64,000 bases of DNA from Micrasema longulum (Eukaryota; Arthropoda; Insecta; Trichoptera; Brachycentridae): assembly GCA_022494885.1 (NCBI GenBank), contig JAGVSM010002894.1:417905-481904 (forward strand), read 5' to 3'. Below, one piece after another: positions 1 through 62,945 of this stretch (position 1 is its first letter; every line of letters begins with the position of its first letter). The notes beneath the pieces were generated by a model that did no database searches, had not been told where the DNA came from, and saw only the letters and a program-made list of their open reading frames with translations. Made by a program: the position numbers and the translations under genes.

Positions 1-113
1 ATGATTGCATCGCCAGCGTTTCTTAGCCTTAAACTTATCTACGAATTGCACGATAAACTTGTTTCTCCCGTATATGAGGTGTACCATGCCCTGCTTAGCG
101 GTAATATATTTGG
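1..113 (-). CDS. FLYWCH zinc-finger terminal exon, cut by the left edge
   Basis: The minus strand has an acceptor (tttgcag at 114-120) followed by two bases and then an open frame reading K-Y-I-T-A-K-Q-G and ending, at the window edge, in K-K-R-W-R-C. Trp is at residue 33 and the first zinc-ligand Cys at 35, the positions seen in nearly all other exons of this array. The second Cys, the HxH pair and the stop lie outside the window. The role by family is DNA or protein binding by the C-terminus of one isoform. It is too short for a standard ORF list but its splice phase, spacing and core motif agree with the other copies. Confidence 0.8.
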
Positions 114-1089
114 CTGCAAATAACAGAAAACAAACAGTATTAGTGTAAATATGAGCGATAATGAGGAATTCCACTGTTTTCTAATTATTTTTTTCTATTA
201 GCGTACTATTTAACTAAGCAAAAATATTTATATTTTTTTTGTGCGTTATTTACAAAGATATGATTTTTTAAAGTTACATTTATTAAATACCACGCCAAAT
301 GACTGTAATCAGTGTGTCACTTTTCAGTAGTGACGTCATGAAACGGTTGGCGTTCTTACTTTCACTGACCTGACAAGAATCTATGGAATATTGCTTTGAT
401 TACTTCATTTAGTTGATCGTAATTTGCTCATTTCTATTTTATGGTTGTTTTTACGAACGTTTCGATTTAGAAAAACCTAGAAAGTTGACATAATCTCCGG
501 TTGAAATGTCAAATTATACAAATTATACTCTTTTTTTTCTATGGTCAAAACGTTGCGGGGGCTTTAAGCGGAAACCGGAAATACTACACGTAGATATAAG
601 GAGTGACGTCACTATTTACGATTTTAATTTTTTTTATTTATTTTTGAGTGCGTTTTTGAGATATTTCATCCTACTCCAACGGAGTAAATAATGGAAAAAA
701 CTAGATCTTAATTTGAGCATACGCGGACTTGGTAATTCGGTACTGGGTGACCATCATAAACGAACTAACAGAGTTACGCAGTTCTTTATCTCAGAATTAG
801 ACGGAGCGCAATTAATTTTACTTCAGTCAGCGCATAATTGCGCAGGCGAAAGATTGCGTGCGAGCTTGTGGCAGTTTTAAAAATATGCAAAAAAAAAAAT
901 ATTAATGTATGAACATCGAACCCATCTCAGATTGTTACAATTAACAACAAACTAATTTTAAAATACTCGTTGCAATCTTAGGGAAGCATCAGTTCCATTT
1001 AATGCATGGACGGACCGCGCGTGATAACCAAAATTGCTCTTTTACTTACTTCGCGTATAATATTATAGTTATAATATTTAGATAATATA

Positions 1090-2019
1090 CGAAGGTTGCT
1101 ACATAAGTTTTGAGATAGACAAGTAAAAACAAATATTTCTAATCGAAAATGTCTTTATTGTTTTTCAAAATATTCTCCTTGAAGATCAATAATACACTTC
1201 AGCATGCGTTTGAACCAATTTTTGAAGCACTTTTTCTAGTCCGACCGAAGTACCTCCAAAACATGAGATTTTAACGTATCAACCGTTTCTTCAGGCGTCG
1301 AAAAACGATGACCTCGCAATTTATTTTTTATATGCGGAAATAAAAAAACATTGGGTGCCAAATCAGAACAGTACGACGGATGACCCATCGATTCGATATT
1401 TTGAATGCTCAAAAATTCACTTGTTTGAGCTGATGTGTGACATTGTCGTGGTGGAAAATGATTCGTCTTCTGCAATTGGTTTCCCCTATTTTTCTGAACA
1501 CTTCTGGCAAACAAATTATGGTGTACCATTCAGAATTGACTGTTCTACGTTGCTCTAATGAAACGGTGGCGACATGTCCAGTTATTCCGAAAAAACAGGC
1601 GACCATTTGCTTTAAAGTGCTTCGCAGTGCAAAGCATCGATTGTTTCTGGCACAACAGCTGATTTTGAACGACCTTCACGAAATTCGCACTGTAACGAAG
1701 TGCGACTACGATTGAATTAAGAAAACCAGCGAAACACGGTGGCTCGATATGATGCTTTATCACCAAAAGTCGCAGCGAGTTGATCCGTACACTGTTGTTA
1801 GTTTAATCCACGTCGAAAGTCATAGAAAATCATCGCACGAAAATGTTCACAATTTAGTTCCATTTTTCAAGTATCTGTAAACAATACAAATATCACTCGT
1901 ATGACAAAACGTTCTGAGTACGATTACCATTAAAAATGGCAAACTTTACGATGAAAATGTCAGATTTGACATATTCACACTGGTGTTGCCATATCTTAAA
2001 ACTTAAGTAGCACCCCTCG
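1090..2019 (-). mobile_element. mariner-type transposon relic, internally deleted
   Basis: The left end (1090, cgaaggttgctacataag) and the right end (2019, read inward cgaggggtgctacttaag) form imperfect terminal inverted repeats, each bordered by the TA dinucleotide that Tc1/mariner elements duplicate. Between them the minus strand carries broken transposase: H-H-D-N-V near 1420-1450 and, in another frame, H-P-x-Y-x-x-D-L-A-P-N with F-L-F-P-H-I-K-N, the region of the mariner catalytic D34D signature. About 930 bp remain of the roughly 1.3 kb expected, and the frame is split into at least three pieces, so it is inactive. It lies just downstream of the FLYWCH exon at 2167-2360. Confidence 0.88.
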
Positions 2020-2166
2020 TATTATATAATTATAATGTACGAGTATGCATGTTACGATAAAAATTGCGCCTTCTTCGCACCTTCGAGTTCCAGCAGACTC
2101 CCGCTTTTAAGCGCGTCGCCTTTCGTCAAATGAAACAAAATTTAATAAATAAAAAAGCGTTTTATA

Positions 2167-2360
2167 TTAGTTGTGATTGTGAATATTTCTAATAAAAACA
2201 ACAGAGTCGGAAACAGTATGCAATCTGGCTTTACATCCATTATAATATTTGTAACATAGCCAACGTTTCCTAAATTTATCTTTGGTCTTGGATTCCAAAA
2301 CATATCTTCCGCCCATAAACATGATACAACGCTGCCCACGCTGAGTGGTAATGTATTGAA
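2167..2360 (-). CDS. FLYWCH zinc-finger terminal exon
   Basis: The acceptor gtttttag (2361-2368) is followed by two bases and 63 codons to TAA. The FLYWCH fold is complete: R-G at residues 7-8, G-G-R-Y at 16-19, K-R-W-L-C at 31-35, the second Cys at 42 and H-N-H at 60-62, followed by one more residue. The open frame runs back through the acceptor into the intron, but the methionines found there have no coding support, so the exon is taken to start at the splice site. It belongs to the GGRY/KKRW group with the exons at 5.4, 12.3, 15.3, 19.1 and 22.3 kb. The inferred product is the C-terminal domain of one isoform of a mod(mdg4)-like protein, used for binding DNA-bound or chromatin partners in the nucleus. 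Confidence 0.88.
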
Positions 2361-4226
2361 CTAAAAACATACAAAATATTAAATTCTGGAAACATGGATA
2401 CCAACACATAAGAATGGTCTAAAAATACTTACTTGTATACGGGAATGAATCTACTCCAAAATTTTCCGCAAAGATTATGGGCACTAGAGCACCGTAATAT
2501 TAACGAGTATAAAAAATCTTTCTTTAATACTTATATTAAATTACGTTAGGTATATTATGTATCTACGTATGAATTAATGTAATAATTATTCAGGATAATT
2601 TTAATAGTGGCATTTTCGTGAAAATCATATTAAGGGCGCTGCACAATAAATATCGCTACAAGTCTTGAACTTACAGAGTGCATAGGAGGTTGATATTCCA
2701 GTTCACTTATTAAAATTATGTTAAATTGTTATAATATATAGGAGCTAAATTACAACACGTCTTGCAGCTACAGAACGCATGTATGGTTAAAAATCTAGCT
2801 CCAATTTACATTTTTTTAATCGATAAGGTAATTTTTTTTTAAATAGCCGATTACAAATAAATCTGATCAAATTTGATATAATTTTATAGTTAATTTAATT
2901 TACGTAACATGAAGCTGATAATACTAAACGTCTTGCAGTTACAAAGCGAATGAACGAATAGAATTATAGCATTTTTTTATTTCAGTATTTTATAATATCA
3001 ATAGTGACGCGAGTGATTCTAAGTAAGTACAAGTCGTGATGAAGAAATACTGACCTTAAAACCGCTGGATGTACAACTAAAAAATTTAAACGGTTTATAC
3101 AAATTTCATAAACAATGTCATGTCACAAAGCGAAATACATTTTTGTCACAAAAATAAACCTCAATCAAGCCAATGACAGGTTTTTTCAAGTAAGTGTGGA
3201 GAATTTATTTTTCCCTTCTATAAAATACTTTCCATATCTGTTGACCTGCTGTGTCGAATATAAAGAAAATGTAAGCATAAATTCCTTAAAGTATGAAGAG
3301 TAAAAATAATTCAATAAAATGGTTTAGGTATTAATTTGTATTTTACCATGTTATATAAACTTTCCAAAGAAATAAAAACAGTGGAACCTCGATTATCCGG
3401 AATGGATTTTATCTATTTTTCATGTGGCATCTCAGAAATTTAACATGAGCATCTCAGTCAGTAAAACAAAAAGCTTAACAATATCTAAGTATCCTAAGAG
3501 ATGCAAACTGATGATAGATGATAAGACAGTGGAACAAGTCATGTCTTTTAAATATACTTCGAAGTGAGGGAACAAACCAATAAAGCCTCGGCAATATCTG
3601 GATTTATTTTATTTTATAAACATAAACGGCAAATCTGCCTTTTACAAACATTTATAATATTAACATATTCGGCTTAATATATATATATATTTTTTTAAAA
3701 CATGACTTTCTTTATACCCAAGATTTATAAAAAAAATTAAACCAAAAATTATACAAGATTTAAATTTAAAAAATTAACCTAAAAATTATACAGCATATTC
3801 AGTAGAAAGTTTAAATAATAAAACATTCTACAGTAAAACAAAAAAAAAATCATAAGTACTGTTTCACACAGCTAGGCAAAGTGAACAAAAAACTGTAAAT
3901 ATATATATTATGAAATGCGTGAATAAATAAATATAATTATCATTCACCATCTTTGAAAAAGTTCAAAAGGTTTGTTCTATAGGAACAATACCCTACACTA
4001 AATATATCTGATACGTGGGAATAACTATTGCTGAGTTCATGAAGTCTATTTAATACTGCATTACAAGTATACACTGTCCGTGAATTGTTGTTACAAAACG
4101 GTGGCACCTGTCTAGTCATTCTTCCAGGCACCCTGAAGTTGACGAGAGATAACAGTTCAGGGCAATCCCATATTGAATTTACAATTTTGAATAAATTTAA
4201 AAATTTAAATTCTTGAGAAATATCGA

Positions 4227-4620
4227 ATGGCACAAGAAAGCAAGGTCCGTATAGACAAAGAGTGTGTCAGACCAATCATGACGTATGCAAAAGAGACGAG
4301 GGCAGATACGGTGACAGCAAAAAATCTGCGGAGAACGTCAGAGATGAAAATACTAAAGGCAATAATAATAGCAGGTGACAGAATCCGGAATCAAGAAATT
4401 AGACGGACTTGCGATAACCAAGTACAGTGGAACGGAACTAGGAGAAGATTCTGGAGAGATCACGTCGATAGCATGGACATCTCCAGAATTCCCTTTACCG
4501 TGGCCCTTGAAATCCCAGCTGGTCGCCTTTTACTTTCTGCTTTCTGCTTTCTGCTTTGCGCGTTTTGCTGCGTTTTTCCACTTCCAGTGTTCAGTGTTTA
4601 GATATCGCCGTGAAGAGGTA
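4227..4620 (+). pseudogene. RTE-type LINE reverse transcriptase C-terminal fragment
   Basis: The open frame contains C-V-R-P-I-M-T-Y-A-K-E-T-R-A-D-T, then L-R-R-T-S-E-M-K-I-L and D-R-I-R-N-Q-E-I-R-R-T-C, the characteristic stretch after the polymerase core of RTE-type non-LTR retrotransposons. The frame shifts near 4430 (W-x-x-H-V-D-S-M-D follows), and the tail carries a tctgctt repeat at 4534-4555. There is no catalytic core, so it is a dead 5'-truncated copy. Confidence 0.72.
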
Positions 4621-4839
4621 TGATGGACAGGAAGATTGTACCTCGAGACAACTTATATGTCTCAAAAATATACGTGATTTGGCAGTTTCTAAAAGGAAAG
4701 CTAATTTTAGGTAAAAGTCAATCACTGTTTTTATTTAATCGTCAATAATTTCAAAATAAAGTTTTATGTCTAGTACATAATATTGTACTTATTTCAATAA
4801 AAATATTCAAATTAATATTATGTAGACATACTGTGTGGA

Positions 4840-5190: not shown

Positions 5191-5351
5191 GCATGATAAA
5201 TTTTGAAGTAAAATTTGGTTTACTATGTATTGAATGCCTGAATCAAAAGTAAGTAAAATGATTCCTTCGGCACGAGGAAGAGTTCAGAGTGAGAATAATA
5301 GTTTTAATTTACAGATAAAAAAAAAACATTATTAACTTTTTACTATTTTTA

Positions 5352-5548
5352 TTATACATCATGGTTATGTATATTATTTACGGAAATGACACTGTTCCCT
5401 ACTGTATACAAGTATCCTTTGCAACCTAAATACGATTTGTAGCAGTTCCACCTTTTCTTCAGTTTGTCTTTATAATCATGTTTCATGTTGTACCTTCCCC
5501 CCAGATACACGATACAGGGTTTTCCTCTTTTTGTATTGATGAAAGTAG
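5352..5548 (-). CDS. FLYWCH zinc-finger terminal exon
   Basis: The acceptor tattttttag (5549-5558) is followed by two bases and 64 codons to TAA. Core residues are K-R-G at 6-8, G-G-R-Y at 16-19, K-K-R-W-N-C at 30-35, Cys 42 and H-N-H at 60-62, followed by D-V. The upstream open frame gives an apparent M-I-G-I-K start, but this lies in the intron. An AATAAA hexamer on the minus strand overlaps the end of the exon (about 5348-5353), which suits a terminal exon. It is closest to the exon at 12.3 kb in this window. Confidence 0.88.
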
Positions 5549-5579
5549 CTAAAAAATATTTAATACCAATCAATGTTAA

Positions 5580-12250: not shown

Positions 12251-12462
12251 CTACGCTAATGGAAAGTCTGCACTATGATTGTGAATATTTTTCACAGAGA
12301 TAATGTTATCTCCTATCGTGTAGATGACGCCTTTGCACCTCCTGTATGCTCTGTAGCACACCCAGCGTTTCTTCATCTTCCCTTTGTAGTTGTGTTCCAG
12401 AATATATCTTCCCCCCATGTATAATATACAAGGTTTTCCCTTTTGAGACACAATATAACGAA
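12251..12462 (-). CDS. FLYWCH zinc-finger terminal exon
   Basis: The acceptor tttcttttag (12463-12472) is followed by two bases and 69 codons to TAG. G-G-R-Y is at 16-19, K-K-R-W-V-C at 30-35, Cys 42 and H-N-H at 60-62, followed by a seven-residue tail S-A-D-F-P-L-A. All zinc-ligand positions are present. It is very like the exon at 15.3 kb (M-G-G-R-Y-I-L in both), which suggests a local duplication. The coding part is richer in G and C than the flanks. Confidence 0.9.
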
Positions 12463-15282: not shown

Positions 15283-15479
15283 TCAGGAAGTATGGTCATG
15301 GTCGTCATTCAAATATGTGATAACATCATTGGTTGTATATAAAAATGATTTACACCCGGCGTACCCTCTGTAGCACACCCAGCGTTTCTTCGCCATCCCT
15401 TTATAGTTGTGTTTGAGAATATACCTTCCTCCCATGTATAACAAACAAGGCTTTCCCTTCTGAGTCATAACATAGCGAG
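15283..15479 (-). CDS. FLYWCH zinc-finger terminal exon abutting a LINE
   Basis: The acceptor catattttag (15480-15489) is followed by two bases and 64 codons to TGA. G-G-R-Y is at 16-19, K-K-R-W-V-C at 30-35, Cys 42, and the ligand pair is H-D-H at 60-62 rather than H-N-H. The stop is followed at once by LINE sequence, so the original 3' UTR and poly(A) signal have been displaced or replaced. The last residues (H-T-S) could have been altered by the insertion. The remaining domain is intact. Confidence 0.88.
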
Positions 15480-19105: not shown

Positions 19106-19317
19106 TTAAAAGTTTTCAATACCAGAATCATGGTTATGCTCATTTTTCACAAGTGTCACAACATCATACACAGTATACAAAGATGATCTGCAACCGGTAT
19201 AGGATTTATAGCACACCCAACGTTTCTTTAGCTTGCCTTTATAACGTTGATCCATTATATATCTTGACCCCATGTGCACGATGCAAGGCCTTCCTTGTTG
19301 GGACCGCACAAAAGTAA
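19106..19317 (-). CDS. FLYWCH zinc-finger terminal exon
   Basis: The acceptor ataatttctag (19318-19328) is followed by two bases and 69 codons to TAA. Q-Q-G at 6-8, G-S-R-Y at 16-19 (Ser in place of the second Gly), K-K-R-W-V-C at 30-35, Cys 42 and H-N-H at 60-62, followed by D-S-G-I-E-N-F. All zinc ligands are present. The LINE tail at 18.54-19.04 kb ends 60 bp beyond its stop codon, on the opposite strand. Confidence 0.9.
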
Positions 19318-22312: not shown

Positions 22313-22512
22313 TTATAAATGATTTGTGTGTCTATCGATATTAGTCGTTATGACATCGCTTCCTATAGTTTGCAGGGAAGCTCTGCAACCTTTGCTTGAC
22401 CTATAACACAGCCAACGTTTTTTTATCTTGAATTTATAACGAGAGTCCATTATGTATCTTCCTCCCTTATACGAAATAGCAGGATTTCCTGTTCTAGAAT
22501 AAATTGAACAAG
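22313..22512 (-). CDS. FLYWCH zinc-finger terminal exon with altered HxH
   Basis: The acceptor ctgtttgtttcag (22513-22525) is followed by two bases and 65 codons to TAA. G-G-R-Y is at 17-20 by position shift of one, K-K-R-W-L-C at 30-35 and Cys 42. The terminal ligand motif reads H-T-N-H (61-64), one residue longer than the usual H-N-H, which may change zinc geometry or use a different His. The upstream M in the open frame is intronic. It belongs to the same GGRY group as its left-hand neighbours. Confidence 0.87.
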
Positions 22513-26127: not shown

Positions 26128-26324
26128 TTAAAAGTTATGATTATGATCAATTCTGAAGTTGATGATAATTTTATTTAAGGTCTGTAGAAAAGATTTGCAG
26201 CCGTTCATCATCTTCTTGCACACCCACCTCTGTTTTGCTTTGTCCTGATAGTATTTCTGTAAGTAGTACCTGTGACCCTTGTAATCGATGGCTAGGTTAC
26301 CTCTTCTCGAGACTACATAGTTAG
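26128..26324 (-). CDS. FLYWCH zinc-finger terminal exon
   Basis: The acceptor accattccag (26325-26334) is followed by two bases and 64 codons to TAA. R-R-G is at 6-8, G-H-R-Y at 16-19, Q-R-W-V-C at 31-35, Cys 42 and H-N-H at 60-62, followed by N-F. An AATAAA on the minus strand begins directly after the stop (26122-26127). The upstream open frame gives an apparent M-S-T-N-S start that I reject, because the acceptor and phase match the other exons. It is intermediate between the GGRY group on the left and the TTR/SRQ-G-N group on the right. Confidence 0.88.
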
Positions 26325-29750: not shown

Positions 29751-29947
29751 CTAATGGTTGTGAGCATGTTGGCTCACGCGAACGATTCTATCGTTAAGTG
29801 TGTAGAGAGAAGCCCTGCATGTCTTGTTCGTTCTCATGGAACAACACCATCGCTTCATGTCCACAGAGCGATACTTGGCCTCCGTGTAGTACATGTGTCC
29901 ATTATACAATATCCGGCGATTACCCTGCCTTGACAAAATGTATTCAA
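29751..29947 (-). CDS. FLYWCH zinc-finger terminal exon
   Basis: The acceptor ttttgtccacag (29948-29959) is followed by two bases and 64 codons to TAG. S-R-Q-G-N is at 5-9, K-R-W-C-C at 31-35, the second Cys at 43 (one residue further than in the left-hand group), and the domain ends H-A-H-N-H directly before the stop. The extra residue between the cysteines and the stop placed exactly after H-N-H are shared with the exons at 36.6 and 39.8 kb. The doubled Cys at 34-35 is unusual. The candidate non-FLYWCH exons lie 230 bp beyond its stop. Confidence 0.88.
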
Positions 29948-31465: not shown

Positions 31466-32400
31466 TAGGGTAGGCCTTAACTGTATACCTAGTTTCAATT
31501 ACCAAAAATTAAATAATTGTAGAAATTTCAAATGTTTTATTTATATTTTCAGAAACAACAATAAATGGAAAATTTAAAAATTTCCAAGTTTGAAAATTAT
31601 ATTGTCCAAGTGAGTTCCACCAGCTTGTTGACATTGTTTAAAGCGGATTCGCAAATTCTCAAAAATCACGTTTAAAAGTTGCCCGTGGGATGGCGTTAAT
31701 TTCCCGTACAATGTTTTATTTTAACTGATTTATTGTTGTTGGATTGTCTTCATAGACTCTTGATTTTAAGTAATCCCACAAAAAAAATCACACAGGCTGA
31801 GATCCGGGTTTCGTGGGGGCCACTCAATCTCCTCCTCGGAAATGAGTTTTCCGGGGAACATCTCCTTCAAACGGTCGAAGATCGGTATCATTCGGCTTCA
31901 ATTCTTGCATCAGTTGAATTTTATAGGGTTTTAGATGTAAATCATTGCGTAAAATTATTTGTCAAGTGGTCCTCTTGCTGTTAAGGGCTTTGCTTCTCTT
32001 GGTAGTTAATTGTTGCGGATTTTCCCTTACTAATTCACTAACACGCTGAATAATTTCTGGTATCCTCGCCGACTTCGGGCGGCCTTCATTTATTATTCTT
32101 ACTGTCGAGCCGGTTGTCTCAAACATTTTGATCCATTCCCGAATAGACTTTGCGCTTGGTGCTTGTCTAATGTCTCGTAAACCGAAGTGAGCGCCGTACA
32201 TTTGTCTCGAAATCGTCACGGAATAATTGTTTACGTAATATGCGCGAACACAAGACGCGCGTTGCTTTCCAGTGAATGGCTCTATGGCGACTAAAAATCC
32301 ACGAAATAGCGCATTTAACGCTACCCTTCGCGCCGCGCTATCTCTGCGTATTATTAAAAAATGACGAAACGAACCGCAAACACAGTTAAGGCCCACCCTA
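31466..32400 (-). mobile_element. mariner-like transposon relic with DUF4817-type HTH
   Basis: The ends tagggtaggccttaactgt (31466) and, inverted, tagggtgggccttaactgt (32400) are terminal inverted repeats beside TA dinucleotides. On the minus strand a 147-residue frame contains F-T-G-K-Q-R-A-S-C-V-R-A-Y-Y, P-S-A-K-S-I-R-E-W-I and F-E-T-T-G-S-T-V, the N-terminal helix-turn-helix known as DUF4817 in insect transposases. A stop precedes the catalytic region, and a remnant at 31.60-31.93 kb is in another frame. The element is about 935 bp and dead. Confidence 0.82.
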
Positions 32401-32639
32401 TACAATCAATAGGATAAGTTAATACCAAAATAAAGAAAACTATAAAAATTTAAAAAATAAGTTTAATAAAAGAAATGTACTTATGAATAAGTAAGAATGA
32501 CTAAAATATGACTGGACTCTTTATGGGACCGATATTGTTTTTTTCTTCTCGTTACCGCAGTAGTGTTTTGATGTGTATTTGAATTAGAAATGTATCGTTT
32601 ATAGATATGTTTATTAATGATAAGTATCACACACGGTAT

Positions 32640-33050
32640 CACCCAAAAAAGAAACATATTGATAAGTTATAAAAATTATAATAATCTTCCCAATGAACTA
32701 AAAAATATTAAAAATAATATATCAATAATTAAATTTAAAGTAAATCTAAAGAAATTTTTTGAACACGTGTAAAAATTACATTAAATTTTAATTAGTATGA
32801 ATGTAATATTGTTTTATGTTTTTCCTTTGTTTACCCTGTTTTTTTTTCTCATGTACTCGTATTTAAAATTATATAAACTCTTAAAAATAAAAAACTACAA
32901 CAGTGTAAGTCACTCTCCAAGCACAAGAGTTAGTCTTTTTATGGAGAGTTACAGTGATAACATTTACTAGATGTGTAAAAGTAGATGCGTAAAGAATTTT
33001 TGAAAAACATGTACCTTTTATGAAATTTATTAATAAAAAAACTAAAAAAA
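32640..33050 (+). pseudogene. LINE 3' end with family-B UTR
   Basis: The plus strand reads Y-N-N-L-P-N-E-L-K-N-I and F-K-V-N-L-K-K-F-F-E-H-V then stop at 32771, the final residues of a CR1/jockey-type reverse transcriptase. The family-B 3' UTR follows (taagtcactctccaagcac, ggagagttacagtgataac). It identifies the source of the family-B repeats elsewhere in the window. Confidence 0.68.
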
Positions 33051-36600: not shown

Positions 36601-36794
36601 TCAATGATTGTGTATATCGGAGGCAGAAACAACATCTTTTCCTACAGTGAATAGAAAAGCTCTGCATTTGTAAGAGCGTCTCATCTGGCAAGCCCATCGT
36701 TTCTTTAATTTGGTCTTGTACATAGTTTCAACAAAGAATAGATGTTTTTTATACAGAATACTCGGATTCCCTAGGCGTGTCGTAAAGAATTCAA
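36601..36794 (-). CDS. FLYWCH zinc-finger terminal exon
   Basis: The acceptor tttattttcag (36795-36805) is followed by two bases and 63 codons to TGA. T-T-R-L-G-N-P is at 4-10, Y-K-T-K-L-K-K-R-W-A-C at 25-35, the second Cys at 43 and H-N-H at 61-63, the last residues before the stop. There is no in-frame methionine before Y-K-T, so a start-codon search misses it; the acceptor, phase and motif define it. Against the exon at 39.8 kb most of the central residues are identical, so the two are recent tandem duplicates. In place of the usual G-x-x-Y it has K-H-L-F-F at 16-20. Confidence 0.9.
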
Positions 36795-39779: not shown

Positions 39780-39973
39780 TTAATGATTATGAATTTCAGA
39801 CACGCTAACAATTTGTGCTCCTACGGTGAATACGTAGGCTCTGCATTTGGTGGACGGTCTCATCTGGCAAGCCCATCGCTTCTTTAGTTTGGTCTTGTAC
39901 ATAGATTCAACAAAGAATATCTGGTCTTTATACAAGATACGCTGGTTCCCCTGACGCGTTGTAACAAATTGAA
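39780..39973 (-). CDS. FLYWCH zinc-finger terminal exon
   Basis: The acceptor taatttttag (39974-39983) is followed by two bases and 63 codons to TAA. T-T-R-Q-G-N-Q is at 4-10, Y-K-T-K-L-K-K-R-W-A-C at 25-35, the second Cys at 43 and H-N-H at 61-63 directly before the stop. It has no upstream methionine and is too short for a start-to-stop search. It is the duplicate of the exon at 36.6 kb. Beyond the stop, both exons are followed by sequence resembling the g-tccaaat-ttg word of dispersed repeat D, so the duplicated unit may include the 3' UTR. Confidence 0.9.
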
Positions 39974-44901: not shown

Positions 44902-45095
44902 TCATCCGTGATTATGAACGCTGTTGGCGTTCATGATCTGGCCATAGATGGTCATGATAGCGGATAGACAGCCACGTCTCGCGTATGAGCACACCCACCG
45001 CTGCTTCATCTTGTTTCGATATTTGGTCTCCATGTGGTATGTCCCTCCTAAATAGTGTAGTTTGGGGTGACCTTTGCGAGTGGTAGAAAATGACA
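44902..45095 (-). CDS. FLYWCH zinc-finger terminal exon
   Basis: The acceptor tttttgtcgttttag (45096-45110) is followed by two bases and 63 codons to TGA. T-T-R-K-G is at 4-8, G-G-T-Y at 16-19, K-Q-R-W-V-C at 30-35, Cys 42 and H-N-H at 60-62 followed by G. Its centre (A-R-R-G-C, M-T-I-Y-G) is unlike the neighbours, so it is a lineage of its own. The overlapping frame on the same strand is a shadow. Confidence 0.9.
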
Positions 45096-50189: not shown

Positions 50190-50595
50190 ATGTTTATATT
50201 TGTAAAAATAAAATAAAGTATTCAGTAGACTCAAATCAGTGTTTGATTTCTAATTATAAGTTTTTTTTTGTTTTTAAATCAGTTGTATTATGGCAATAGT
50301 TTTTCGTCTTTGGCAAATAAGACTTTATCGTCTGAACAGGTAGAAGAAATGGCGGCAGGCCTCAGGCACGGCGGTCTGATGACATAAGACGGGTTGCATG
50401 AAGCGGTTGGATGCGGTTCCCTCAGGATAGGGAGATGTGAAGATCTAAGGGGGGCAATGTTCACCCTGGGACACGAGAAGAGCGATGATGACGATTACAA
50501 TAGTATAATGTGTTACATTTCATGATTGTGAGTTGTCATTCTATAAAGAATGATGTCTCCAGCGGTGTGTACAATAGCCCGGCATCCATCCCGAT
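50190..50595. repeat. Left copy of 406-bp direct duplication
   Basis: This segment is identical, as far as I can compare by eye, to 54628-55033. The two copies border the Penelope-like element. The copy contains the 3' part of a FLYWCH exon and its downstream sequence. Confidence 0.92.
50513..50595 (-). pseudogene. Half FLYWCH exon created by the duplication
   Basis: The minus strand encodes the second half of the domain: R-D-G-C-R-A-I-V-H-T-A-G-D, then T-H-N-H-E-M and TAA. It is the same as residues 38-64 of the exon at 54951-55147. The splice acceptor and the W-V-C core are missing and are replaced by a short filler and Penelope sequence. The longer open frame reading through it into the element is accidental. 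Confidence 0.9.
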
Positions 50596-50621
50596 TTTCC
50601 ATCCCGATTTTCCATCCATCC
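50596..50621. repeat. Junction filler made of target-like words
   Basis: Between the exon fragment and the element lies tttccatcccgattttccatccatcc-type sequence (26 bp), repeats of the catcccgat word present at the break. It looks like template slippage at the 5' junction of the insertion. Confidence 0.75.
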
Positions 50622-52092
50622 TCATTTGTCAGAGATTCTTCACATTTCGTGGATACAACAAAGGAGCTAAAAGTTGAGAAGGATGATATATTAGTCAGTT
50701 TTGACGTAGTGTCACTTTTCACGAATGTGCCCCTGAATGACGCAATGGTACTTATAAGAGAGATTTTTAGTGAAGACATGTGCGCTTTATTTGAGTACTG
50801 CTTAACAAATGGATACTTTTCTTTTGAAAATGAAAATTTTTAAACAGTTAGAAGGAGTGGCTATGGGCAATCCTTTATCGCCGGTTCTAGCAAACTTTTT
50901 CATGGAGACATTTGAAGAAACGGCCTTGGACACAGCTCCATATGCACCCAAAGTATGGCTTCGATACGTAGATGACGTATTTGTCATTTGGAATCATGGT
51001 GCAGAAAGATTAACAGTGTTTTTAGACCACCTAAATAATCTCCACCCGGCAATACAGTTTACTATGGAAGTAGAGGAGGACAAAAGCCTATCTTTTCTAG
51101 ACGTCAAATTAAGCAGAAAGGAAGATGGCAGACTGGGACATACGGTGTATAGAAAACCCACACATACAAACCGGTATCTCCATGCTACCTCACATCACCA
51201 CCCATCTCAAAAATTAGGCATCATAAACACGCTGGCCAGAAGGGCAACACGTATTTGTGAAGAAAGTAACCTAGAAGAGGAATTGAATATACTGACAAAA
51301 GTATTAGAAAGTAATGGCTATGAAAAGAAGGATATAAAAAGAAGAATAATGTCGGTAACAAATCCAAAGAATATTTCCAAGATGGATGATGCTAATACGG
51401 ATAAAAGAATAGCGTTCCTTCCCTATGTCAAAAATGTCACGGATAGAATTGCAAAAACGCTTAAGAAACGGGACATAAGGACAGTGTTCGGTACGACCTC
51501 AAAAGTAAGAAACTTAATAAAATCAGTAAAAGATCGGGACCCACTTGAAACAGATGGAGTATATAAATTAAATTGCAAAAGCTGTGAAACAGTCTACATA
51601 GGGCAGACTGCCAGAAACATAATGACAAGAATAAAAGAGCACAAGAGTGCATGCAAGTTGGGCTACCCGGATAAATCAGCTCTTGCAGAGCACTACATAG
51701 AAACAGGGCATAATTTCTCATTTGAGCCAAATGTCCTTGGAAAGCCCAAAAATCATCAAGCCCGTTTAATAAAGGAAGCCATAGAAATATACAAGCATCC
51801 TAATAACATAAACAGGGATGATGGGTTACGACTACGAACCTCATGGTACCCGGTGCTTCCAAAGCCCACGGTACAAACTCCACACACTTAACCACATACA
51901 TTGCCCGACTGCGACACGGTACAAATTCCTCACAATTAAACACACTAAAAACTACACTCATACATTCAGCCCTGAAGATGGACACTGCAATGTGCTCCGA
52001 AACGTCGGCAATACAAAGCCCACAAACACGGCATAATAACCCAGAAAAACACTATCTATATTCTGAAGGCCGTGAAAACCTACGAACCTTGA
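50622..52092 (+). mobile_element. Penelope-like element, 5'-truncated first copy
   Basis: The copy starts inside the reverse-transcriptase region. A first frame (50550-50843) carries S-F-D-V-V-S-L-F-T-N-V-P, RT motif A. After an extra A in a homopolymer near 50834 the next frame (50809-51891) has G-V-A-M-G-N-P-L-S-P, R-Y-V-D-D-V-F and the GIY-YIG endonuclease region (G-V-Y-K-L-N-C, then V-Y-I-G-Q-T-A-R). The 3' end is at 52092 and runs straight into the second copy. This truncated-plus-full tandem is the usual form of Penelope-like insertions. Confidence 0.9.
51972..52010 (+). ncRNA. Hammerhead-ribozyme-like motif of the Penelope terminal repeat
   Basis: CTGAAGA, a stem (ggacac/gtgctcc) and CGAAAC followed by GTC fit the core CUGANGA - stem II - GAAA of a hammerhead. 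Such ribozymes are known in the terminal repeats of Penelope-like elements. An equivalent motif is at 54508-54546 in the second copy, one base different in the loop (gatagacac). Stems I and III were not verified. Confidence 0.55.
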
Positions 52093-54628
52093 TTACGAAC
52101 CTCTATGGGGAGGAGATCTACTTTTCTACACGACGCCTGGAGAATCTCCGGAAGAAGAAAGTGAACTTGCTAACTAGTTTAGCATTTTTGCTGAGGTGTA
52201 GAGACCAGTGCATCATACCTACACACATTAAAATACATCGAAATATTCGCACACTCAAGTCCGAGAGAGTATTCCAAAGAGCAGAAGCAGCGCTACTCAG
52301 GGAAAGGATAAGCAATACCCGTTTCGAGTTAGACAAAATCTCGAAAACCCTGTATGATCTGCATCTTCTCCTCGGTGCTACCTTGTCACCCCAACACTTC
52401 ATGAAGATTGAAGACATAACCCATACCCAAGCTGAAAGAAGTAAACTAGCAGTAGAGAAGAAACAGAAAAAGAAATTCCAAGAAATGGGAAAGAGAAAGA
52501 AAGAAAAGACAATTCAACTGGATCCACAGAAAGTGGTGATGAATCTATCTAGCCAAACTCTGAGCAAAGATGCAATATCGGTACTCAGTAAAGGACTCAA
52601 CTTTGCAGTTACGCCTAAGACCATCCCGGTTGAGGACATAATATGTGGAGTTGAGGCGGCACTAAGTAAGAAGATCCCTATTGCAGTTGCGGAAGAAATC
52701 CGACAAGATACTTGCCTGATATTAAGAAAAACTAAATTACCACCATCTAACATATCCAAACAGGAACGCATAGCCTTAAAAGAACTAAGGGACAATAAAG
52801 ATATTTTAATTCTACCAGCCGACAAAGGAAACGCAACCGTGGTATTGGATCAAAAAACATATTCTGACAAGATGCGTGAGCTATTAAAAAGCAAGACATA
52901 TGAAAAACTAAAGAAAAAATCCCACCAATAAGATTGATAAAGGAATAAGGGAGTTAGTGAGGAAATCTAATATTCCTAAAGACTTACATTGGAAGATATT
53001 TACACAAGCTCCGAAAACTCCAGCACTATACGGACTACCAAAAATACACAAAGAAGGCACTCCTTTGAGGCCAATAGTAAGCACTATAGGTGCTCCTACA
53101 TACAAACTCTCACAATACTTGGCAAGTCTCCTTCAAAAACACACGGGAAAAACCACTTCATTTGTCAGAGATTCTTCACATTTCGTGGATACAACAAAGG
53201 AGCTAAAAGTTGAGAAGGATGATATATTAGTCAGTTTTGACGTAGTGTCACTTTTCACGAATGTGCCCCTGAATGACGCAATGGTACTTATAAGAGAGAT
53301 TTTTAGTGAAGACATGTGCGCTTTATTTGAGTACTGCTTAACAAATGGATACTTTTCTTTTGAAAATGAAATTTTTAAACAGTTAGAAGGAGTGGCTATG
53401 GGCAATCCTTTATCGCCGGTTCTAGCAAACTTTTTCATGGAGACATTTGAAGAAACGGCCTTTGACACAGCTCCATATGCACCCAAAGTATGGCTTCGAT
53501 ACGTAGATGACGTATTTGTCATTTGGAATCATGGTGCAGAAAGATTAACAGTGTTTTTAGACCACCTAAATAATCTCCACCCGGCAATACAGTTTACTAT
53601 GGAAGTAGAGGAGGACAAAAGCCTATCTTTTCTAGACGTCAAATTAAGCAGAAAGGAAGATGGCAGACTGGGACATACGGTGTATAGAAAACCCACACAT
53701 ACAAACCAGTATCTCCATGCTACCTCACATCACCACCCATCTCAAAAAATTAGGCATCATAAACACGCTGGCCAGAAGGGCAACACGTATTTGTGAAGAA
53801 AGTAACCTAGAAGAGGAATTGAATATACTGACAAAAGTATTAGAAAGTAATGGCTATGAAAAGAAGGATATAAAAAGAAGAATAATGTCGGTAACAAATC
53901 CAAAGAATATTTCCCAGATGGATGATGCTAATACGGATAAAAGAATAGCGTTCCTTCCCTATGTCAAAAATGTCACGGATAGAATTGCAAAAACGCTTAA
54001 GAAACGGGACGTAAGGACAGTGTTCGGTACGACCTCAAAAGTAAGAAACTTACTAAAATCAGTAAAAGATCGGGACCCACTTGAAACAGACGGAGTATAT
54101 AAATTAAATTGCAAAAGCTGTGAAACAGTCTACATAGGGCAGACTGCCAGAAACATAATGACAAGAATAAAAGAGCACAAGAGTGCATGCAAGTTGGGCT
54201 ACCCGGATAAATCAGCTCTTGCAGAGCACTACATAGAAACAGGGCATAATTTCTCATTTGAGCTAAATGTCCTTGGAAAGCCCAAAAATCATCAAGCCCG
54301 TTTAATAAAGGAAGCCATAGAAATATACAAGCATCCTAATAACATAAATAGGGATGATGGGTTACGACTACGAACCTCATGGTACCCGGTGCTTCCAAAG
54401 CCCACGGTACAAACTCCACACACTTAACCACATACATTGCCCGACTGCGACACGGTACAAATTCCTCACAATTAAACACACTAAAAACTACACTCATACA
54501 TTCAGCCCTGAAGATAGACACTGCAATGTGCTCCGAAACGTCGGCAATACAAAGCCCACAAACACGGCATAATAACCCAGAAAAACACTATCTATATTCT
54601 GAAGGCCGTGAAAACCTACGAACCTTGA
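52093..54628 (+). mobile_element. Penelope-like element, full-length second copy
   Basis: The unit is 2,536 bp, the offset between equivalent positions in the two copies. An N-terminal frame (to 52931) holds a basic helical region (K-K-Q-K-K-K-F-Q-E-M-G-K) and I-L-P-A-D-K-G-N-A-T-V-V. A frameshift follows in an A-run near 52917. The second frame (52957-53796) has P-A-L-Y-G-L-P-K-I-H-K, F-D-V-V-S-L-F at residues 94-100, G-V-A-M-G-N-P at 145-151 and R-Y-V-D-D-V-F at 181-187. Another frameshift in an A-run near 53746 is followed by a frame (53660-54427) ending in the GIY-YIG domain (G-V-Y, V-Y-I-G). All catalytic motifs are readable but the reading frame is broken twice. Confidence 0.92.
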
Positions 54629-55033
54629 TGTTTATATTTGTAAAAATAAAATAAAGTATTCAGTAGACTCAAATCAGTGTTTGATTTCTAATTATAAGTT
54701 TTTTTTTGTTTTTAAATCAGTTGTATTATGGCAATAGTTTTTCGTCTTTGGCAAATAAGACTTTATCGTCTGAACAGGTAGAAGAAATGGCGGCAGGCCT
54801 CAGGCACGGCGGTCTGATGACATAAGACGGGTTGCATGAAGCGGTTGGATGCGGTTCCCTCAGGATAGGGAGATGTGAAGATCTAAGGGGGGCAATGTTC
54901 ACCCTGGGACACGAGAAGAGCGATGATGACGATTACAATAGTATAATGTGTTACATTTCATGATTGTGAGTTGTCATTCTATAAAGAATGATGTCTCCAG
55001 CGGTGTGTACAATAGCCCGGCATCCATCCCGAT
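54628..55033. repeat. Right copy of 406-bp direct duplication
   Basis: Identical to 50190-50595. It runs from the 3' end of the Penelope-like element into the middle of the FLYWCH exon at 54951-55147, which remains intact. It includes the exon's stop and about 320 bp beyond it. Confidence 0.92.
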
Positions 55034-55147
55034 CCCGCGCACAAACCCAGCGAATTTTACCCGACACCGCGTTCCCGGGCTGTCTAAACCTGAACCCATC
55101 GACCACAATCATTTTCTTTCCTTTCTGCGAGATGATGTATTGCAAAC
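54951..55147 (-). CDS. FLYWCH zinc-finger terminal exon, intact beside the Penelope insertion
   Basis: The acceptor taatttgcag (55148-55157) is followed by two bases and 64 codons to TAA. S-Q-K-G is at 6-9, R-Q-P-G-N-A at 21-26, K-I-R-W-V-C at 30-35, Cys 42 and H-N-H at 60-62 followed by E-M. The duplication endpoint falls inside it at 55033, but the exon reads through unbroken. It shares R-Q-P-G-N-A and the G-C-R-A core with the exon at 58.8 kb, so these two form a separate subgroup. A tool that relies on start codons would call a TTG start here; the splice site is the better explanation. Confidence 0.92.
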
Positions 55148-56890: not shown

Positions 56891-57036
56891 ATGCATTAAA
56901 AAAATATATATAAGTATTTATATTATGTTTATTTGTATCGAAGAAGTTGTTGTTATTTTAATTTATCGTCGTACTTTTAATTTTCTTTAGTCGTATTTTA
57001 TTTTGATTATACCTGTATATAAAATCATCATCATCA

Positions 57037-58324: not shown

Positions 58325-58556
58325 TTCGATAATGAACATCGTTAGACGAGGACGACCAAGGAAGACGTGGCATGATCAGATAAACCAAAATCTCTCTGGT
58401 CATGTCAAAAGCAGACAGAGCCGAAGGGCATGTGTGACAAGATGTATGAATGTGGAAGAGGCTAGGACTGTATGCCAGGATAGACGTGTGTGGCGGTCCA
58501 TTCTCTCTGCCTACCCCTACGGGGAAATGGCGTGATGGTAGTAGTAGTAGTTAGTT
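58325..58556 (+). pseudogene. RTE-type LINE C-terminal fragment with (TAG)n tail
   Basis: The frame reads R-R-G-R-P-R-K-T-W-H-D-Q-I, R-C-M-N-V-E-E-A and ends S-I-L-S-A-Y-P-Y-G-E-M-A, then a (tag)n run at 58536-58550. It is the same family as 18.54-19.04 kb, more strongly truncated. Confidence 0.82.
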
Positions 58557-58832
58557 GTTTTTCGTCTTCGTGACTATTTTGTTTAATTTACCTTTTCATT
58601 ATTTACTACAGATATTAATATTTTTACAGATGCTGCATTCATTTTTTATTGACACTTTCTTCTAATGCATACTATTTTTTATGTTTAAGAAAAAAAAGAA
58701 ATCCTTTTTTTGTAATCTTTTCACTGCTGTTATAATTTTGTAAAAGGTTAATTGAACCGTAAAAAAATTAAATAAGAGTAATAATAACGTAATTTTCAAA
58801 TTGGTGGTTAAAAATCGAAAAGTTCTGAAATG

Positions 58833-59041
58833 TTAGCATTCTTCTGTTTTTGGATGATTGTGTGTACAATGACCGTACAAAAAATTGTCGTTCTCCGTGT
58901 GAATATAAGCTCGGCAGCCATGATGCTCACGTGCGCAAATCCAGCGTATTTTCCCCGCTTTGGCATTTCCAGGTTGCCGATACTTGTAACCTTTATATAC
59001 AATCATGTGTTTCCCTTTTTGGGATTTTACGTAATACATAC
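58833..59041 (-). CDS. FLYWCH zinc-finger terminal exon
   Basis: The acceptor gcttgttttag (59042-59052) is followed by two bases and 68 codons to TAA. M-Y-Y-V-K-S-Q-K-G opens it, R-Q-P-G-N-A is at 21-26, K-I-R-W-I-C at 30-35, Cys 42 and H-N-H at 60-62, followed by P-K-T-E-E-C. All zinc ligands are present. The internal ATG right after the acceptor is not taken as a start, because the shared phase and acceptor indicate splicing. Nearest relative: the exon at 55.0 kb. Confidence 0.9.
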
Positions 59042-59159
59042 CTAAAACAAGCATTTCGTTTTAATAAGTAGGTAGATTATTAACAATCAAAGCAAATTAA
59101 AAGGTATTATATGAGCAATCTTATTCAAATTTTGATAAAAATATCAGTAAATTTCCTTG

Positions 59160-59420
59160 GTTACGTTTAAAAGAGACAACGGACGCGGCAACCTCCGGTG
59201 ACAAGCGTCATCAAGCGAAGGCGATACGGCTGATGCCTTAACTACGATTGCCTACTTTACAAGGCATCAGGTTCTCTCGGTCATGGACGTCTATGGCTGA
59301 CAGTCGGTCGGCAGTTCAAGTTTGAAATACGAGACGCGGAACTGACTTCGCAGGACACACGGGAATTGGTCGCAGACAGAGAGGCAGGGAGAGATTTTGT
59401 GGATTCCATATAACTCACCT
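59160..59420. other. GC-richer unexplained segment
   Basis: About 260 bp of balanced base composition (gacaacggacgcggcaacct, gacagtcggtcggcagttc) in AT-rich surroundings. No frame, splice site or repeat match within the window. It runs up to the foldback at 59437 and may be the body of the same mobile element. Confidence 0.35.
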
Positions 59421-59436
59421 ATGGATTAAATAAGTA

Positions 59437-59558
59437 AGTTTTACCTTATTTTATTAGACCAGCGAGAGCTTCCGCTTAACTAAGTTAAGTAGACCACCAC
59501 TGAAGATGCTCACTTAGGTGAAAGCGCTTGTTGATCTAATAAACAAAGTAAAACGGAA
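59437..59558. repeat. Foldback with hammerhead-like core
   Basis: gttttaccttattttattag and, inverted, gttttactttgtttattag face each other around ccactgaagatgctcacttaggtgaaagcgc. The core CTGAAGA...GTGAAAGCGC resembles the one at 25.80 kb. Confidence 0.6.
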
Positions 59559-60979
59559 GAATTGTTATTTTATTGCTATTTTTATCAAAATCATACATAA
59601 CTAATTCGTTACCAAAATGATTTCTCCATAATACCACGCGAGCGAAGCCGCGGGAAAAAGCTATTAAAAATGAGTTCTCACTAGGATATCCTCTTTTGAA
59701 AAATACTGCAAAGGATCAATTTTTGTATTGACGTCTTTTAATGACAAATATTGACAAAGACTTGCATTTTTTCAATATAGGAACACAATCTTATCGATCT
59801 TTATAATGTTTTAATGTTTTACAAGCGTGTTAGAAATAATAAAACCAAATGTTAAAATAATGAGCATTTAATGAAAATGAAAGTAATAACGTAATATTAA
59901 ATAATAATAATACTAATTAATTGAGTTCTTTATATCTACCTAGTAAGAAATGAGTAAAGGAAAACATTTGCATTTTGAAAATTTATTTGAAGTAGGTACC
60001 TAATTGTTCAACATAAAATTTATTAGGAAGACTTACATATTTTTAAGGATATTATCTAACGAAAAATTAAAAGCATGCTCTAAAAAAAGCAAACCTATTA
60101 CTATAGTAATTGGACACACTAAATCTAATGGTAAAAATAAATAAACGTAATAATTTATCTCCACCATAAAATAGTGTGTTTTTTCTTAAAATGAAAGCTA
60201 ATATAATAAAATAAAATAAATAAAACAACTTTGTTTTTAACCACTAATATTATCGTTTATTTATTTTTGACTGACAGATTTAAAATATCCACTTACTGCA
60301 GCATGGCCATTGTCCATATGTCCAATTACTACAGCATCCACCATATTTATTACTGGACATATGAACAAAACCAGTTGAGTTTCCAAGGATTCAATATGAT
60401 GCTTCCAAATATTGGACATAATATATTTTTGAAAACATTACTGAAAGCAATATTATATTTTTCTCACTACAGCCACATTTTCAGAATACTATTTACCTTA
60501 TTCACTAAAAAATACATGAAATGTAAGTATAAAATATTATAATATGCCGGTAGATAGTTTGTTGTATTATGTTTTGCTAAAGTGTCATAAAGAATGCAAT
60601 AAATTTATACGATATTTAGGATAGAGAGGATAGTACGCCATGTATCTAACGCTTTTATTACATACAGACTTCGATTCCTCTATAAGCATGCACCTTTTAG
60701 TGCAAGAACGAGATTTTATCGACCGATATTACGCGTAAAATTCGCAAAAATGTATATTGGTAGGTAGTAATAATATATAATTACAGTAAATATTAAAAAA
60801 TGACTGTCCACAGAGCCTTTTCAGATTATATACTAAATTTTTTGTAATGATTTTTATGGGCGTATGTTTTATAAAAAATGCGGTTTAAAATACTTAATAA
60901 CCTGTATAATAAAATAACTGTTATCTTAAATGTACATTATTATATATTTTTTTATCAAATTAAGGCACAATCGATTTAT

Positions 60980-61095
60980 TGTTATATCCCTATCTGCACC
61001 CAGTGGTGCATAGGCCAATGCATTGGTACACCAAATGCAGCGTCTTTTGATCATCTCCCACATGAAGGAAAGGTGATCGGTACAAGGCACAGTTA
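60980..61095 (-). repeat. SINE family A, tail part
   Basis: cacccagtggtgcataggcc, gcattggtacaccaaatgcag and catgaaggaaaggtgatcgg are the inverse of the family-A SINE body at 46.88-46.97 kb. Confidence 0.6.
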
Positions 61096-61619
61096 GAGTT
61101 TTTAGTACAAATCAACGAATACAGTATTGTTTTTAATACTAAACTAAAAGTATGTATAATTAATTATATGCAAAAACTATGTATAAAAATAAATTTGAAC
61201 AGAATATTCGAAAAATTTGACCCTAGTCTGGCAGCTGAAGCGTAAAGCCTTAGAGTATATAAATATACTCTAAGCGCAAAACCATAATAATGTTCTAAAA
61301 ATGACAGTTTAGAAAAAGAGATTATTTTAGCACTACCATTTCAAGCTTAAAAATATATTCTTTGTTTACTATGCATAAAACCTAGTTATAGTAATGATAT
61401 TTTTTTCGAGTATTGATACGTAGGAACAAGAAAATGATAAATTTATTTGATTAATGTGAAAAAAACATTTATAAAATCTATAATATGTAGAACCATAGAT
61501 ACTGCAATAATTTCTTCAGACTGATATTTTCAGGCAAATGACATTTGGTTAGTTTAAGCAATTACTTTATACTGTGTGTTAATATTTTGGAACCAGTATA
61601 ATACATTGTATATTATTAT

Positions 61620-61985
61620 GATTATTGGCATTAAAGCATGCATATACAAGTTGGTTCTATAGGAGAATTCTGGAAATTTACTGTAGGGATCGTATCAGGA
61701 ATGGCGAGGTTCTCAGTAGAATCGAAGAAGGAAGGTACTTGCTTAAGATCTTCTCCGAAAGACGTGCTAGATGGATTGTACATATAGTGCGTCACGAGTC
61801 ACGAGGGTCTTCTACATGATAATAGAGGGCATGTCTGAGGGAACAAAATATAAGGGGCACCTTTGCCGAGAACACCTCGCAGATTTATGAGAGGATATGA
61901 GCTGCAGGTAACATGAAGAACTAAAGAGTGCCGCACAGGACAGACCGGAGTGGCAGAGAAGATGCAAACCGATTAATTTTAGTGG
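61620..61985 (+). pseudogene. RTE-type LINE C-terminal fragment, decayed
   Basis: The frame reads H-A-Y-T-S-W-F-Y-R-R-I-L-E-I, then D-R-I-R-N-G-E-V-L and R-R-A-R-W-I-V-H-I-V-R-H-E-S, a worn version of the RTE-type C-terminus. A further piece, G-Q-T-G-V-A-like, runs to about 61980 in other frames. Confidence 0.6.
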
Positions 61986-62739
61986 ATTAAAATCAGAGAC
62001 AGGATATTGTCAAAACATATGGAAAACAATCGATTTTTTTGCGAAGTAAATCCCTTCAAATTTCTCTGTTTTCAAAATGATTTTAATATTTATTTGTGAA
62101 GAATAATCTATTAAAAGCAATTAATTAATTAAGAATAAAACACATGTAACTGCAAACAGCAAGAAAATTATAAATAGTATGGAAAAATAATAAAACAAAA
62201 CACCGAAAAAGAAATCACAAAACTCAACCATTTATATAGGGCAAGACTCCGGGGAATTTCGAAAATATTTTTTAAATACCTATGTGCGTTCAAACATCAT
62301 TATATTTAACAAGTGGTAAAAACGTATTCCCAAAGACTATCAAGGGGTTAAATATGAGTCACTAAACAAAGATAAACCTACAAAAAATGGGTTAATTGTT
62401 ATGAGAGAAAAAAATTGACACAAACTACTATGAAACTATTTTTTGTGTGCTCAACGAGCCTCCAAAGATACTAATGTTTCTCTTGGTTCCATTGTTAAAC
62501 TTGTTATTCTCTCTACACATATAAAAAAGGATTATAGTATTATTTTTTTGAGTAGAATCAACTCTGAATATTTGTCTAGATAAAATAATCGTTTAGGAAA
62601 AAAAAAACGTTTGTTAAAAGGTTCTAGATCAGTGTACAAAAATATGTCAGCTAAATATTAAAGCCAGTACTGATCTTAAAGATATGGGCATGCTCAAAAT
62701 GATGTAGATGTTCCAGCTTGGTTCATATTTCATTCCTTC

Positions 62740-62945
62740 CTATTTATGGTTATGAGTTCCTGACAGGAAAGCAATCTTCCCGTTCTCCGTATGACACCTG
62801 ATGCTGCACTGCTTCTTCTTCTGGTGGTCGAACATATAGCTGCACCTCCAGAAGACCTTGAACCCCTTCCTTCTGGTCGCCTGGAACTCGTATCCTCGAA
62901 CTACCATCAGAGTTTCTCCGGTGCTTGAAACTTTGAGGAAGAAAT
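62740..62945 (-). CDS. FLYWCH-like terminal exon, most divergent member
   Basis: The acceptor tattttgttttgtag (62946-62960) is followed by two bases and 67 codons to TAG. S-S-T-G-E-T opens the core, R-G-Y-E-F is at 16-20, F-W-R-C at 31-34, a long basic loop H-Q-K-K-K-Q-C ends with Cys 46, and H-N-H is at 64-66, followed by K. The spacing between the two Cys is four to five residues greater than in the other exons. It is the rightmost (5'-most) exon seen and may be an older or functionally distinct lineage. Confidence 0.87.

What the first reader, a model, noticed from the sequence alone, without database searches (positions are those of the whole stretch)
1..62945. Array of 15 phase-matched FLYWCH terminal exons on one strand
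Fifteen minus-strand segments spread over 63 kb each start at a splice acceptor, contribute two bases to a split codon, encode one FLYWCH finger and stop. In 14 of 15 the Trp of the W-x-C core is at residue 33 after the splice site; in the exon at 62.7 kb it is at 32. Identical phase makes them interchangeable 3' exons. The known precedent is mod(mdg4), where alternative FLYWCH tails are joined to a common BTB exon by cis- or trans-splicing. An array with this many tails, with no common exon in 64 kb, raises the question of whether distal exons are reached by trans-splicing.
Basis: partly seen in the sequence, partly recalled or inferred. Interest (0 to 1): 0.88.

Follow-up and report, generated by a model that had tools for sequence, protein, structure and literature searches.

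The report
Giant insect mod(mdg4) tail-exon array
The window is part of an unusually large set of interchangeable last exons of one insect chromatin gene, mod(mdg4), and the shared first half of that gene lies on the opposite DNA strand, so its tails should have to be joined by trans-splicing.

Summary
Confirmed and extended. The 15 minus-strand FLYWCH exons are there; an acceptor choice blind to frame picks the claimed site in 15 of 15, with Trp at residue 33 in 14. The window is the last 64 kb of a 482-kb contig. The common exons lie 161 kb to its LEFT on the PLUS strand: a three-exon mod(mdg4) ortholog (BTB, 283 aa) ending in a phase-1 donor. In the 224 kb right of that donor, 40 complete FLYWCH exons are antisense to it and none is on its strand, so cis-splicing cannot reach them; trans-splicing is the economical reading. 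In 11 contigs I read 163 phase-matched exons (162 distinct proteins), a lower bound, under purifying selection (median dN/dS 0.21). The insect is probably a caddisfly. A relative with a 93%-identical donor part shows the predicted BTB-FLYWCH junction in one frame. Antisense trans-spliced tails are known from Danaus; Kong et al. report at most 41 tail combinations in six species. New is a roughly fourfold larger set, though I compare exons in DNA with isoforms in RNA. No RNA of this species was examined.

The parts
1..113 (-). FLYWCH 3' exon, cut by the window edge (complete at C2755:417803-418017); Trp 33
2167..2360 (-). FLYWCH 3' terminal exon; acceptor TTTTTAG|TT, Trp 33
5352..5548 (-). FLYWCH 3' terminal exon, Trp 33
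12251..12462 (-). FLYWCH 3' terminal exon, Trp 33
15283..15479 (-). FLYWCH 3' terminal exon, Trp 33; dN/dS 0.18 against the 12.3-kb exon
19106..19317 (-). FLYWCH 3' terminal exon, Trp 33
22313..22512 (-). FLYWCH 3' terminal exon, Trp 33; ends H-T-N-H instead of H-x-H
26128..26324 (-). FLYWCH 3' terminal exon, Trp 33
29751..29947 (-). FLYWCH 3' terminal exon, Trp 33
36601..36794 (-). FLYWCH 3' terminal exon, Trp 33; dN/dS 0.21 against the 39.8-kb exon
39780..39973 (-). FLYWCH 3' terminal exon, Trp 33
44902..45095 (-). FLYWCH 3' terminal exon, Trp 33
50513..50595 (-). 3' fragment of a FLYWCH exon (no Trp core), a copy of the 3' part of the 54.95-kb exon
   Evidence: start from the reading frame, end from the repeat limit
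54951..55147 (-). FLYWCH 3' terminal exon, Trp 33, complete beside the Penelope-like insertion
58833..59041 (-). FLYWCH 3' terminal exon, Trp 33
62740..62945 (-). FLYWCH 3' terminal exon, Trp 32 (acceptor 95 nt before the Trp codon)

Best explanation
The window is the distal part of the 3'-exon array of the mod(mdg4) ortholog of an insect, probably a caddisfly. Shown from DNA: one donor gene on the plus strand of the same contig (coding exons C2755:255728-255938, 256047-256601, 256695-256778) encodes a BTB domain and linker and ends one base into a codon (G|GTAGGA). Each of the 163 FLYWCH exons counted has an AG that supplies the missing two bases (giving GNN, never a stop), one finger and, where read to its end, a stop. 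In the 224 kb right of the donor all 40 complete FLYWCH exons are on the other strand. Inferred: the tail exons are transcribed separately on the minus strand from their own promoters, and the donor pre-mRNA is trans-spliced to them, so one BTB half is given more than 160 different tails. Inferred from homology: the products are chromatin or insulator-type proteins whose tail sets target specificity.
For: Donor BTB: 66% and 64% identity to the Drosophila query, the only two of 34 listed places above 60%; gene model and phase. The 120 closest proteins listed are BTB proteins (PF00651 in each row); where named with an organism they are Lepidoptera or the caddisfly Arctopsyche, called tramtrack-like, mod(mdg4), uncharacterized or unnamed. 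In 188 of 188 relatives held after two searches a residue V/A/G/D/E follows ..AQ at my predicted junction. P0001, donor part 93% identical over 267 aa, has donor and FLYWCH tail in one frame on a 1387-base contig with no intron at the three junctions. Strand: C2755:257905-481904 holds 41 FLYWCH matches at E < 1e-3 on minus (40 complete, 1 fragment) and 0 on plus; the donor's own 3 kb holds none. In 4 of 11 array contigs exons occur on both strands (C204 3+/14-, C1272 1+/33-, C4767 5+/1-, C4540 1+/2-). Selection: 48 of 51 measurable pairs have dN/dS up to 0.5, median 0.21. Antisense trans-spliced tails are reported in Danaus (33 of 40 isoforms; PMC4667647 section 8).
Against: No RNA from this species. 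The strand argument rests on one contig being correctly assembled; a reverse-transcriptase-like frame (judged by eye) lies between donor and first tail exon. No 8-mer upstream of the 40 exons stands out, there is no excess of poly(A) signals (28 of 40 have AATAAA within 600 b, random 0.76), and no U1-complementary donor-intron motif better than chance: promoters, 3' ends and the Drosophila-type trans-splicing signal are not seen. Non-FLYWCH tails, which could be spliced in cis, were not looked for; 4 of 10 Arctopsyche isoforms have tails without any match to my exons. P0001's own tail finds only 38% identity in my exons.
Confidence: 0.87

Rival explanations
1. Same gene, but cis-spliced: the contig is misjoined between donor and array, or a second donor copy lies beyond the contig end on the minus strand, so that ordinary alternative last-exon splicing suffices.
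For: The assembly has 5184 contigs and the window ends at a contig end; a repeat-like frame lies between donor and array; Anopheles has cases with donor and tails on one strand (PMC4667647).
Against: Only one place has mod(mdg4)-grade BTB identity; no Ns in the stretch; four other contigs carry tails on both strands, which no single cis transcript can serve. Danaus has a mostly antisense layout.
Confidence: 0.08
2. The FLYWCH exons belong to several different BTB or other genes that happen to share the phase.
For: A second BTB gene with two same-strand FLYWCH exons exists on C3379; one of these exons (L119) has AGs in the matching phase.
Against: None of the ten array contigs other than C2755 holds a BTB match to the query at E <= 0.001, although C1272 is 325 kb long. 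Two exons on different contigs (C1272 219 kb, C2755 279 kb) are 56-69% identical to Lepidoptera tails of this gene. Contig ends link by paralogy (C204-C5105-C4799).
Confidence: 0.04
3. Transposon-borne or decaying FLYWCH copies without function.
For: FLYWCH domains occur in some transposases (recalled; PMC3169594 on a nematode Mutator element holds the word, seen only in search listings); the window has retroelement frames.
Against: Third-position substitutions dominate (0.123/0.115/0.291), dN/dS is low, 147 of 149 keep the C-C-H-H pattern, 40 complete exons against 1 fragment in 224 kb, and the ten window ORFs scanned gave no Pfam transposase match, though one has a DUF4817 helix-turn-helix.
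Confidence: 0.01

Closest known systems
mod(mdg4) of Danaus plexippus (PMC4667647: section 8 and passages read)
   Same: Donor with BTB, tails mostly on the opposite strand (33 of 40 isoforms), one scaffold, 550-kb locus, trans-spliced isoforms backed by RT-PCR (14 of 18)
   Different: 40 isoforms from 24 acceptor genes, 7 isoforms from the donor strand there; at least 162 distinct phase-matched tail exons here, and none found on the donor strand in the 224 kb read to the donor's right. The first is a count of isoforms, the second of exons in DNA
mod(mdg4) of Drosophila melanogaster (PMC12692577, PMC5666082: abstracts and passages read)
   Same: BTB common part plus FLYWCH-bearing alternative 3' exons, tails on both strands, independent promoters, trans-splicing
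   Different: 31 mRNA variants, four common exons and 402 common residues there; three coding common exons and 283 residues here; no U1-pairing intron motif found here (the Drosophila motif is recalled, its papers are not held)
LOC143919269 of the caddisfly Arctopsyche grandis
   Same: 83% identical donor over its whole length, same junction
   Different: isoform names run X1-X11 (X9 not listed); X1, X2, X3, X5 and X7 carry no PF04500 in the listing

Membership tests
mod(mdg4) (modifier of mdg4) | Common N-terminal BTB of ortholog grade | tested here: met
   66/64% to the Drosophila query; 93% to P0001, 83-85% to Arctopsyche and Lepidoptera. Unrooted donor tree: own with P0001 (94), Lepidoptera together (100), Arctopsyche between
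mod(mdg4) (modifier of mdg4) | Alternative 3' terminal exons with a FLYWCH finger | tested here: met
   14 of 14 complete window exons match PF04500; 163 phase-matched exons read
mod(mdg4) (modifier of mdg4) | One donor phase serving every tail | tested here: met
   850-nt CDS leaves one base; 136 of 149 frame-blind acceptors in matching phase; each of the 149 has a matching AG at 89-116 nt, 21 of them assigned by rule after the best-scoring site failed it; same junction in 188 of 188 relatives
trans-splicing locus | Donor and acceptors not on one continuous transcript | tested here: met
   Opposite strands for 40 of 40 complete exons right of the donor; DNA geometry of one assembly only
trans-splicing locus | Chimeric mRNA observed | not testable with these tools
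   No reads from this species; P0001 from a relative shows the joined frame but not how it was joined
trans-splicing locus | Separate promoters of acceptor units | tested here: inconclusive
   No 8-mer stands out in three 1-kb bins upstream of 40 exons after about 500 tests each
trans-splicing locus, Drosophila type | U1-pairing motif in the donor intron (recalled) | tested here: not met
   Best match equalled by 21 of 60 random sequences; in the proximal 2 kb by 118 of 200
lola-type array (features recalled) | C2H2 fingers as tails | tested here: not met
   The 14 window tails scanned match FLYWCH and no other Pfam family at 0.01

The most novel reading that the evidence does not exclude
One donor pre-mRNA serves well over 160, perhaps 200 or more, separately transcribed tails spread over about 0.9 Mb of summed array span, reachable only by trans-splicing: a combinatorial zinc-finger repertoire several times larger than any mod(mdg4) locus I found described, still being extended by tandem duplication and held by purifying selection.
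Probability: 0.5. Interest if true: 0.8.

Novelty: new member of a known kind. Interest (0 to 1): 0.62.

Why it matters
Trans-splicing between separate animal transcripts is rare, and how a donor finds its acceptors is open. A locus with one donor and well over a hundred candidate acceptors of differing age, 40 of them shown antisense to it, is a natural series for finding what an acceptor needs, and for asking why one insect lineage keeps so many tails. It also shows how such tails are born: tandem copying, after which little is kept but the piece from the polypyrimidine tract to the stop.

Tried and rejected
U1-pairing motif in the donor intron: not above chance. Poly(A) signals after the stops: no excess. 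Upstream 8-mers: none stands out. Haplotig redundancy: among blastn matches between contigs that overlap both exons, the best identity is 76%; the two matches above 95% over 100 b do not overlap exons on both sides: one is the shared stretch of neighbours 375 b apart, the other a 118-base flank match. C968 holds two identical 341-base stretches, counted once among 162. Relatives of a C5105-type tail alone: 1 candidate, none significant. phmmer of one window tail against the PDB: none; the profile of 14 found 2RPR.

Dropped before counts: the two C3379 exons (own BTB gene; L119 does have matching-phase AGs, which speaks mildly for shared ancestry), the C4799 60-kb hit (L129, Tyr for Trp), the fragment at 50.5 kb. 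The 163 total leans on a rule: of 149 exons, 127 had the best-scoring AG in phase at 89-107 nt, 21 were given another matching AG (13 of them with an off-phase best site), one was kept at 116 nt; 14 more were taken with an acceptor picked by eye.

A wider count by other queries was not possible: the genome search was answered only. The PF04500 search scored 150 of 219 candidates; in the one stretch read throughout (C2755) it listed 24 where 40 complete exons were found, so the other ten contigs, read only around hits, are probably under-counted.
Full report
OBSERVATION. The window is C2755:417905-481904 of a 584-Mb, 5184-contig assembly, and its right end is the contig's end (481,904 b). Reading all frames gives 14 complete minus-strand FLYWCH exons and one at the left edge that the contig completes. 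Fourteen of 14 complete exons match PF04500, and their profile finds the solved FLYWCH1 finger 2RPR (E 1.9e-6).

BEYOND THE WINDOW. A PF04500 search of the assembly scored 150 of 219 candidates: 148 lie in eleven contigs and two in C3379. I read C2755:257905-417904 whole and short stretches around the 126 hits outside C2755. A profile built from the 14 window exons gave 150 matches at E < 1e-3, of which 149 have a core (148 TGG, one Tyr): C2755 40, C1272 34, C5105 33, C204 17, C4711 15, C4767 6, C4799 4. Fourteen more came from the last 17 stretches. Total 163, 162 distinct proteins. Best-scoring acceptor in the matching phase: 136 of 149; other AGs 0.35.

DONOR. A BTB query (Drosophila Mod(mdg4), recalled) gave 34 places; the only two above 60% identity are adjacent on C2755, PLUS strand, 255,728-256,195. 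Reading 3 kb there gives exons 255728-255938, 256047-256601 and 256695-256778 with GT/AG borders, 850 coding bases, 283 residues plus one base, G. With the 149 tails the split codon is V 71, A 40, G 18, D 13, E 7: GNN can never be a stop. The window starts 161 kb from the donor's last exon. In C2755:257905-481904, 41 matches (40 complete) are minus and none plus; the donor's own 3 kb has none. The contig left of the donor was not read; one search lists no FLYWCH there.

IDENTITY. Donor plus the 12.3-kb tail against 5.8 billion proteins: best P0001 (JGI source, 345 aa on a 1387-base contig), then Arctopsyche grandis (a caddisfly) and Lepidoptera. P0001's donor part is 93% identical over 267 aa. 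In 188 of 188 relatives held the tail follows ..AQ at once. An unrooted donor tree puts own with P0001 (94), Lepidoptera together (100) and Arctopsyche between; own, P0001 and Arctopsyche share the GFGDGSVTGDT stretch that the 13 Lepidoptera shown lack. The organism is therefore probably a caddisfly; this is inference from one protein. P0001 passes the three junctions without introns, so I read it as a spliced transcript; a retrocopy is not excluded.

EVOLUTION. Across 149 exons the first Cys is invariant, second Cys 0.99, first His 1.00, second His 0.99, Trp 0.99. Of 53 pairs at least 60% identical, 47 lie in one contig; dN/dS could be computed for 51: median 0.21, 48 up to 0.5, maximum 0.80. 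Conservation covers polypyrimidine tract to stop and falls to background outside (41 and 26 pairs). Best match is an own-genome paralog for 147 of 163, in the same contig for 116 of 163 against 0.16 expected at random. The six pairs across contigs tie the right end of C204 to the left of C5105, the right end of C5105 to the left of C4799, and C4767 to C4799. Taking each held tail's best hit, only two exons are matched at 55% or more: C1272 219 kb (61-69%) and C2755 279 kb (56-58%), both by Lepidoptera tails; the sample is 188 of some 3200 significant proteins. P0001's tail finds only 38% in my exons while its donor is 93% identical: fast turnover, or an unread exon.

MECHANISM. Opposite strands mean that donor and these tails cannot share a pre-mRNA. 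Trans-splicing is described for this gene in Drosophila (PMC12692577, abstract and passages) and in Danaus, where 33 of 40 isoforms use opposite-strand exons (PMC4667647, section 8). Tail combinations there are 31, 9, 40, 41, 35 and 34 for six species. I infer the same here. The FLYWCH of Mod(mdg4)-67.2 aids recruitment to chromatin, though the protein without it still rescued (PMC5666082, passages), so tails as targeting modules is inference by homology.

NOT SEEN. Promoter motifs, poly(A) signal excess and a U1-pairing motif were sought without result.

PRINT. The listings of searches of the open-access library showed no paper on a caddisfly mod(mdg4) tail array or on more than 41 tails. PMC5094011 (passages) reports Mod(mdg4) transcripts in all neopteran orders but two, which implies caddisflies; the passages seen say nothing of tail numbers. 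Subscription papers, among them Krauss and Dorn 2004, were not readable. Isoform numbers in the names of annotated Lepidoptera proteins run to X50 in the lists of 120. The fourfold figure compares exons in DNA here with isoforms seen in RNA there.

VERDICT. A real mod(mdg4) locus, ordinary in kind and extraordinary in size.

Noticed in passing
window 50190-55033: A Penelope-like retroelement (RVT_1 and GIY-YIG matches; two stretches of 1473 b 99.3% alike) sits between two identical 406-base direct repeats; the repeat copies the 3' part of the 54.95-kb exon and leaves that exon complete.
   Followed up: partly
window 31965-32405: Reading frame with a DUF4817 helix-turn-helix match (PF16087, E 3.3e-11), not explained by the array.
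   Followed up: no
window 22313-22512: The exon's last ligands read H-T-N-H instead of H-x-H; a weakened finger or a start of decay. C2755:266109-266347 also misses the pattern.
   Followed up: no
C3379:105590-133295 (outside the window): A second BTB gene (51-55% to the Drosophila query) with two FLYWCH exons on its own strand; one has no matching-phase AG in the range looked at.
   Followed up: partly
C968:12177-12517 and 32555-32895 (L120, L134): Two FLYWCH exon stretches 20 kb apart are identical over 341 bases: recent duplication or assembly copy.
   Followed up: no
C2755:349487-394160: A 44.7-kb gap without FLYWCH exons inside the array, against 0.4-14.4 kb for the other gaps.
   Followed up: no
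window 2230, 5418; 12332, 15349; 19187, 22382; 36587, 39766: Several neighbouring exons recur at about 3.0-3.2 kb spacing; whether the sequence between them once matched was not tested.
   Followed up: no
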